Assembly: GCA_000733355.1 (NCBI GenBank)
Contig: JNVV01000004.1
Coordinates: forward strand, 1,043,046 to 1,107,045
Length of the DNA stretch: 64,000 nt
Direction: 5' to 3'
From: Falciphora oryzae
Taxonomy: Eukaryota > Ascomycota > Sordariomycetes > Magnaporthales > Magnaporthaceae
This document shows positions 42,843 through 43,595 of this stretch, in pieces. The position numbers were made by a program, and so were the translations under genes. Position 1 is the stretch's first letter. Each line of letters starts with the position of its first letter. A model generated the notes under the pieces. That model was not told the origin of the DNA. It did no database searches and was given only the letters and a program-made list of their open reading frames with translations.

Positions 42843-42850
42843 TTAATTAG

Positions 42851-42940
42851 GGGGACTTTTCCGTTCACACCCTATTCCTACGCACCCCCCCCCCACAACG
42901 CCGACATCGCTGATTATGTAAATTTGTGTGCGCCACACGG
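42851..42940 (+). repeat. Left terminal inverted repeat of the 737-bp element
   Basis: 37 bases are identical to the right end in inverted orientation, then a C tract, then partial similarity. Confidence 0.85.
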
Positions 42941-43037
42941 CCAACCCCACATAGGCGTCAATTTCAACTACCAGTCAATTTGCGCAACGATTAACAAATA
43001 ACGCCCCCGACAAGTTGAAGCTATTCACAAGCCCGCC

Positions 43038-43358
43038 ATGGCGTCGCCAACGCCCTCCTGGTTTTCCGAACACGACGAGGACGCTCGCAGTACCTCGGAG
43101 AACTCCGAATCACGCGTCTGGCACCCAGATTGGGACGGAAAGCCATGGCACGCAGCTCCGCCGGACAATCTTTTGTCGACCCTTTGGTCTACCCATGACG
43201 AGGCCCTCGAGGCCGTTGAAAAGACGATTGCACAACGGGTGGCCGCAAGGAGGGCACGGGAGTTAAGAGAGGCGTCACAGGACCGTTTTGATCGGGACTT
43301 GCAAAGAGATTTGCAATGCGGGCATTGGGACGAAGAATGCCGCTGTGTTGTAAAGTAA
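43038..43358 (+). CDS. Hypothetical 106-aa protein inside the TIR element
   Basis: A single uninterrupted frame with an excellent start context (CCCGCCATGG). The protein is hydrophilic and has several Trp. It shows an N-terminal acidic/Ser stretch, a middle with HPDWDGKPWHA, and a strongly helical Arg/Glu/Asp-rich region (ALEAVEKTIAQRVAARRARE), ending in a Cys/His cluster (CGHWDEECRC). I recognise no family. It has no signal peptide or membrane segment. It could be a host gene fragment carried by the element, a protein encoded by the element, or a chance frame. The start context, acidic/basic patterning and helix argue for a real gene. Confidence 0.55.
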   Translation: MASPTPSWFSEHDEDARSTSENSESRVWHPDWDGKPWHAAPPDNLLSTLWSTHDEALEAVEKTIAQRVAARRARELREASQDRFDRDLQRDLQCGHWDEECRCVVK

Positions 43359-43497
43359 ATCTCTAGCTATCGATTCATCTATTTTTTACTTCTGAATAGC
43401 TTCATTCCGTTGTTGTGCGCCGCTTTTTATTTTGTTGTTGTGCGACGCCCTTTATTTTGGGTGTCCATGGCCTGTGTTATTTTATATGAGCGCGCCA

Positions 43498-43587
43498 CAG
43501 AAATTACATAAGCCCGAGACCGGTGGTGGCGGAGGTGTCCACTGTGGGGAGGGTGCGTAGGAATAGGGTGTGAACGGAAAAGTCCCC
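43498..43587 (-). repeat. Right terminal inverted repeat of the 737-bp element
   Basis: Complement of the left end; the terminal 37 bases match perfectly. Confidence 0.85.
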
Positions 43588-43595
43588 TTAATTAG

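What the first reader, a model, noticed from the sequence alone, without database searches (positions are those of the whole stretch)
42851..43587. Compact 737-bp inverted-repeat element carrying an intact 106-aa gene
Perfect 37-bp ends, imperfect TIRs of about 90 bp and an exact 8-bp target duplication (TTAATTAG) enclose a single clean ORF with a strong start context. There is no transposase. Unlike the retrotransposons in the same window, it shows no RIP damage. It resembles a Pack-MULE-like or hAT-like vehicle moving a small gene of unknown function with a C-terminal Cys/His cluster. Gene-carrying nonautonomous DNA elements are rarely described in RIP-competent fungi.
Basis: partly seen in the sequence, partly recalled or inferred. 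Interest (0 to 1): 0.75.

Follow-up and report, generated by a model that had tools for sequence, protein, structure and literature searches.

The report
Internally deleted Mutator-like transposon
The 737-base element is a shortened, non-autonomous copy of a fungal Mutator-like jumping gene, and its "106-residue gene" is only the two ends of the lost transposase joined together by a deletion, so it is an ordinary transposon derivative.

Summary
The anatomy is real: a 737-bp element at 42851-43587 with 37-bp perfect ends and an exact 8-bp duplication TTAATTAG. The interpretation changes. The genome holds two more copies of the same element (C79, C35) and longer relatives. In the longer relatives the 106-aa ORF is split: residues 1-59 are the start, and residues 60-106 the end, of a transposase coding region of about 825 codons with a Pfam MULE domain (PF10551) between them. 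Against the long copy C75 (2833 bp, TSD TTATTATA), 2153 bp are missing between two 5-bp AGGCC repeats. So nothing was captured. The "strong start" is the transposase start codon. The extra cysteines of the "Cys/His cluster" are two G>T changes found only in this lineage. Lineage-specific changes are 4 nonsynonymous and 2 synonymous, as expected without selection. One of the three copies carries a stop and RIP-like C>T changes. Other deletion derivatives exist in the same genome. It is a new member of a known kind: an internal-deletion derivative of a fungal MULE. A KP-like regulatory role for the fusion peptide is not excluded but has no real support.

The parts
42843..42850 (+). left 8-bp target site duplication TTAATTAG
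42851..43587 (+). 737-bp non-autonomous MULE derivative, ends GGGGACTT
42851..42887 (+). left TIR, 37 bp perfect (imperfect extension inward)
   Evidence: alignment
42888..43037 (+). inner part of left end and 5' leader, inherited from the long element (C75 copy 95% identical over element positions 1-364)
43038..43358 (+). 106-codon ORF plus stop: fusion of N- and C-terminal ends of the MULE transposase
43038..43214 (+). codons 1-59, the start of the transposase (ATG is the transposase start)
43210..43214 (+). AGGCC, 5-bp microhomology at the deletion junction (2153 bp missing relative to the C75 copy)
43215..43358 (+). codons 60-106 and stop, the end of the transposase
43551..43587 (-). right TIR, 37 bp perfect
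   Evidence: alignment
43588..43595 (+). right 8-bp target site duplication TTAATTAG

Best explanation
It is an internal-deletion derivative of a fungal Mutator-like element (MULE). A full-length element of about 2.8 kb, with a transposase coding region of about 825 codons, lost 2153 bp between two AGGCC repeats; abortive gap repair or slippage is inferred. The deletion kept both TIRs and subterminal regions and joined codons 1-59 to the last 47 codons in frame. The shortened element was then moved in trans at least once, since copies with one and the same junction sit at two places (window, C79) that each have their own perfect 8-bp TSD. The 106-aa ORF is a by-product with no demonstrated function. 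Shown: shared ends, shared junction, split ORF, MULE domain in long relatives, TSDs. Inferred: the deletion mechanism, trans-mobilisation, and lack of function.
For: Three copies share the junction (C4 window copy, C79:32251-32985, C35:36281-37016). C75:35508-38340 matches element positions 1-364 and 357-599 at 95% and 97%, with 2153 bp extra between them. That gap holds PF10551 MULE (E 3e-13). C114:14784-18505 has the same layout, with PF10551 4.1e-15 in one piece, and C80:155599 onward gives PF10551 3e-22 in a 477-aa open frame that contains the same N-terminus. Exact 8-bp TSDs, with each end allowed to shift by one base, are found for 7 of 8 simple copies with both ends readable. Five other deletion layouts with both coding ends were seen: C35b/C80b, C31, C65a, C1, C65b; C12 is a further one with the N-terminal end only.
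Against: No intact full-length transposase of this family turned up in the searches of this assembly: C75 and C114a carry stops and interruptions, and C80a and C114b are each only half an element that breaks off within about 300 bp of a contig end. The mobilising enzyme is therefore not identified. The C35a copy has no TSD. C75's right end holds a 66-N run, so its right TIR is only partly readable.
Confidence: 0.95

Rival explanations
1. Pack-MULE-like or hAT-like vehicle carrying a captured host gene of unknown function.
For: TIRs, 8-bp TSD, one clean ORF.
Against: Both halves of the ORF are the ends of the family's own transposase coding region. Of 27 genome matches to the 106-aa protein, the 5 outside the loci of this family are weak (E 0.0045 to 2), and 4 of those 5 places (C112, C33, C118, C62) also match the family's transposase. 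None in the protein collection (7 candidates, none at E <= 10). The long relatives carry a MULE domain and no hAT domain.
Confidence: 0.02
2. The fusion peptide works as a trans-acting regulator of its MULE, as the KP protein of the internally deleted P element does: a truncated transposase that blocks the full enzyme.
For: ORF intact in 2 of 3 copies. Of 6 deletion layouts with both coding ends, 3 (the 737-bp element, C35b/C80b, C31) join them in frame. KP-type repressors from internally deleted P elements are described (PMC7776569, passages seen).
Against: 3 of 6 in frame is what chance gives (P = 0.32), and C35b, C80b and C31 carry stops. The peptide keeps only 59 + 47 residues and no MULE domain. 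The single-sequence model is one helix with an unstructured first part (mean pLDDT 75, pTM 0.38). Changes on its lineage are 4 nonsynonymous: 2 synonymous, no sign of constraint.
Confidence: 0.04
3. The short element is ancestral and the long ones arose by gain of a middle part.
For: None found beyond formal possibility.
Against: The long forms carry a transposase coding region that recurs in diverged subfamilies (C75, C114a, C80a), while the other two short copies are at least 98.9% identical to the window copy, that is, young.
Confidence: 0.01

Closest known systems
Fungal Hop/VdMULE-type Mutator-like elements (VdMULE1-3 of Verticillium dahliae; Hop1 of Fusarium oxysporum), PMC3441728: section 11 read, other passages seen
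   Same: Long TIRs (53-86 bp in its text, about 100 imperfect here), an 8-bp TSD (seen there for one element), single-ORF transposase with PF10551, full length 3.4-3.6 kb there against 2.8-3.7 kb here (C114a includes a nested insertion); defective copies of 363-2,371 bp occur beside them.
   Different: Terminal consensus there is GGNAA; here GGGGAC, GGGAC or GGGAAC by subfamily. No sequence comparison with Hop1 or VdMULE was made here, so clade membership is untested.
Internally deleted P elements / KP element (PMC7776569, passages)
   Same: Non-autonomous derivatives made by internal deletion that keep both ends and can keep a shortened transposase ORF.
   Different: Different superfamily; KP is a 207-aa repressor protein, here 106 aa with no function shown.
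Pack-MULEs of plants (PMC6446971, passages)
   Same: MULE ends, non-autonomous, carries an ORF.
   Different: Pack-MULEs carry fragments of host genes; this carries only fragments of its own transposase.
hAT-captured histone H3 in Pseudocercospora fijiensis (PMC6710886, abstract and passages)
   Same: A fungal DNA transposon with more than its transposase inside, in a RIP-competent genome.
   Different: There a real host gene was captured; here none was.

Membership tests
MULE (Mutator-like) superfamily | 8-11 bp target site duplication (PMC6446971) | tested here: met
   8 bp exact in 7 of 8 simple copies with both ends readable; C35a has none
MULE (Mutator-like) superfamily | long terminal inverted repeats | tested here: met
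   37 bp perfect, imperfect and gapped to about 100 bp
MULE (Mutator-like) superfamily | MULE-type DDE transposase (PF10551) in the autonomous partner | tested here: met
   PF10551 in the C75, C114a and C80a relatives; not in the 737-bp element itself; none of these copies is shown to be active
Hop clade of MULEs | transposase groups with Hop in a tree | not tested
   no Hop sequence was fetched
Pack-MULE | carries a fragment of a host gene | tested here: not met
   ORF halves are the family's own transposase ends
hAT | hAT transposase in the autonomous partner (8-bp TSD alone does not separate the two) | tested here: not met
   pieces of the partners give PF10551 and no hAT domain at E <= 1
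MITE | short, TIR-bounded, no transposase, homogeneous and high copy number | tested here: inconclusive
   short and homogeneous, but only 3 copies found, a lower bound
KP-type repressor | encoded peptide represses transposition | not testable with these tools
   would need expression and an excision assay
KP-type repressor | keeps a recognisable DNA-binding domain of the transposase | tested here: inconclusive
   no Pfam match in the 106 aa at E <= 1; the DNA-binding part of this transposase is unknown

The most novel reading that the evidence does not exclude
The in-frame joining of transposase ends, seen in three independent deletion layouts of one MULE family, makes small trans-dominant regulators of the transposon: a fungal MULE counterpart of KP.
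Probability: 0.04. Interest if true: 0.5.

Novelty: new member of a known kind. Interest (0 to 1): 0.15.

Why it matters
It removes a false "new small gene" from this genome. It is also a clean worked case of how a deletion derivative of a transposon can pass for a gene-carrying element: intact start codon, in-frame junction, a chance Cys/His motif. If the fusion peptide did regulate its transposon, it would be a fungal parallel to the KP repressor, but nothing here shows that.

Tried and rejected
Captured host gene: rejected by the split alignment to the transposase. Zinc-binding C-terminus: rejected as a conserved feature, since the bases that make C101 and C103 are G>T changes found only in the 737-bp lineage, in 0 of 6 relatives compared. 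The model does put a short bridge between residues 97 and 103, so a metal site is not physically excluded. Purifying selection on the fused ORF: not detectable, 4 nonsynonymous to 2 synonymous changes against about 68-78% nonsynonymous expected; only sites where the window copy differs from all relatives compared and the relatives agree (at most one exception) were counted, mixed sites were dropped. The ends look constrained between subfamilies (pN/pS 0.15-0.48; C35b and C80b left out because their first half is not homologous past codon 49), which reflects their history as transposase, not the fusion. Within the subfamily the first half of the window copy against C75 gives 8 nonsynonymous and 1 synonymous difference (ratio 2.24) and the second half 4 and 3 (0.37); C75 is a decayed copy. 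Selection for in-frame deletions: 3 of 6 layouts, P = 0.32; C65a is counted as not in frame because a stop and a frame change lie between its ends (counting it gives 4 of 6, P = 0.10), C12 is left out because it keeps only the N-terminal end, and later small indels in C1 and C65b could have changed their frames. Empty site in the same genome: flanks joined and searched; only the two window flanks themselves came back, so no paralogous empty site. Protein collection: 106 aa, 7 candidates, none at E <= 10; 477-aa C80a frame, 7095 candidates, none at E <= 0.001. The collection does hold fungal proteins, so close relatives may simply not be annotated there; I draw nothing from it. Literature: the searches listed no paper that I could tie to this exact element; I looked inside five papers and saw the rest as listings with the start of the abstract.

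Full report
Observation. From 42851 to 43587 there are 737 bases bounded by GGGGACTTTTCCGTTCACACCCTATTCCTACGCACCC and its reverse complement, flanked on both sides by TTAATTAG. The octamer occurs nowhere else in the 64-kb window in either orientation. A 106-codon ORF runs from 43038 to 43358.

Copies in the genome. The window lies in a 50.2-Mb assembly of 123 contigs. Searches with the element and its protein found two more copies with the same layout: C79:32251-32985 (1 substitution and 2 bases of poly-C different from the window copy) and C35:36281-37016 (5 substitutions and small length differences). The counts are lower bounds, as the tool states. The C79 copy has its own exact TSD, TTTTTTTG. 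The C35 copy has none.

The ORF is a transposase remnant. In other loci the ORF is not one piece. In C75:35508-38340, element positions 1-364 match the start (95%) and positions 357-599 match C75 positions 2509-2751 (97%). Between them lies a coding region, broken by stops and frame changes in this copy, that hits Pfam PF10551, MULE transposase domain, at E 3e-13. C114:14784-18505 and C80:155599 onward start in the same way and give PF10551 at 4.1e-15 and 3e-22; C114a also ends in the same way, while C80a breaks off near the contig end. C80a gives a 477-aa open frame that contains the relative of residues 1-59. C114:23255-24466 (minus) gives a 404-aa open frame whose end is the relative of residues 60-106. 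In C75 the stretch from the first to the last codon spans about 2.47 kb, which would be about 825 codons (from the coordinates).

The deletion. Aligning the window element to C75 puts the junction at 43214/43215. AGGCC ends both the retained 5' part (C75 position 363) and the lost part (C75 position 2516): 5 bp of microhomology and 2153 bp missing. The start codon with its good context is therefore the transposase's own start.

The Cys/His cluster. Of 8 relatives set out, 7 read CGHWDEEGRW near the end and the eighth (C31) has a stop for the W; the window element reads CGHWDEECRC. The bases behind both extra cysteines are G>T changes found only in the 737-bp lineage (0 of 6 relatives compared base by base). 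More distant copies vary further (C65b lacks the first Cys and the His). The cluster is not a conserved motif.

Selection. Changes assigned to the 737-bp lineage are 2 in the first half (both nonsynonymous) and 4 in the second (2 synonymous, 2 nonsynonymous): 4 to 2 against about 68-78% nonsynonymous expected without constraint (P = 0.63 and 0.39). This is a small sample; it does not exclude weak constraint. The copy at C35 has a stop codon in the ORF. All 5 of its substitutions against the window copy are C>T, 4 at CpA, as RIP makes them. So the family is not exempt from RIP; the window and C79 copies are simply young or spared. RIP is reported to need about 400 bp of repeat (PMC6710886, passages).

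Other derivatives. The same family has further deletion layouts: C35b and C80b (one layout, 96-98% identical to C114a in DNA pieces), C31, C65a, C1, C65b, and C12 (N-terminal end only). Of six layouts with both coding ends, three join them in frame (the 737-bp element, C35b/C80b, C31), no more than chance (P = 0.32); in C35b, C80b and C31 the joined frame has stops. Exact 8-bp TSDs, with each end allowed to shift by one base, flank 7 of 8 simple copies with both ends readable: C4, C79, C75, C65a, C114a, C80b and C35b; not C35a. C12 is not counted, as it is chimeric; C31, C84, C80a and C114b lack a readable end, and C1 and C65b show no clear family ends (with the orientation of C114b and C65b corrected).

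Structure. A single-sequence AlphaFold2 model of the 106 aa is one long helix (45-93) running across the junction, with a low-confidence first 40 residues and a short tail in which residues 97 and 103 form a bridge (mean pLDDT 75, pTM 0.38). It gives no hint of a compact fold; a single-sequence model is weak evidence either way.

Placement. TSD length, TIRs and PF10551 make the family a MULE. Verticillium VdMULEs are close in build: 3.4-3.6 kb, 53-86 bp TIRs, an 8-bp TSD on one element, a single ORF, and defective copies of 363-2,371 bp (PMC3441728, section 11 read). MULE TSDs are 8-11 bp and plant Pack-MULEs carry host gene fragments (PMC6446971, passages). This element does not meet the Pack-MULE definition.

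Function. The most likely account is that the short element is moved in trans by a full MULE transposase through its ends, and the ORF is a passenger left by the deletion. A KP-like regulator is the most interesting reading not excluded (KP: PMC7776569, passages). Nothing here speaks for it beyond an intact frame in two young copies and three in-frame layouts that chance explains.

Noticed in passing
L061 (C12:691172-692585, minus strand): A left TIR at 692585 and a right TIR at 691172 share the 8-bp TSD TAAAAATA and enclose about 770 bp of DNA with no match to the three family queries, plus a second left end at 691751: a chimeric element and the better candidate for real DNA capture by this family.
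   Followed up: partly
C72:13816-14253, C34:109234-109659, C9:15155-15640, and one end at C85 near 62309 (L066, L067, L068, L065): A MITE family with TIR GAGAACCTTTCCGTGCACACCCTATTCCTACGCACCC sharing the 29-base TIR core, with a GTCGCTGCAAWT minisatellite inside. TSDs TTGTTTTA (C72) and AACTTTTA (C34); no matching TSD in C9 (TSDs read from the sequence printed).
   Followed up: partly
C80:155599-157249 and C114:23047-24708: Two half elements stop matching C75 at nearly the same point (positions 1458 and 1463), each within about 300 bp of a contig end; they may be one element interrupted by an insertion that broke the assembly.
   Followed up: no
   Followed up: no
C35:106703-108128 and C80:69593-71031: A derivative of about 1.43 kb in two copies that joins the first 49 codons in frame to about 290 C-terminal codons, with one TAG where C114a has TGG.
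   Followed up: partly
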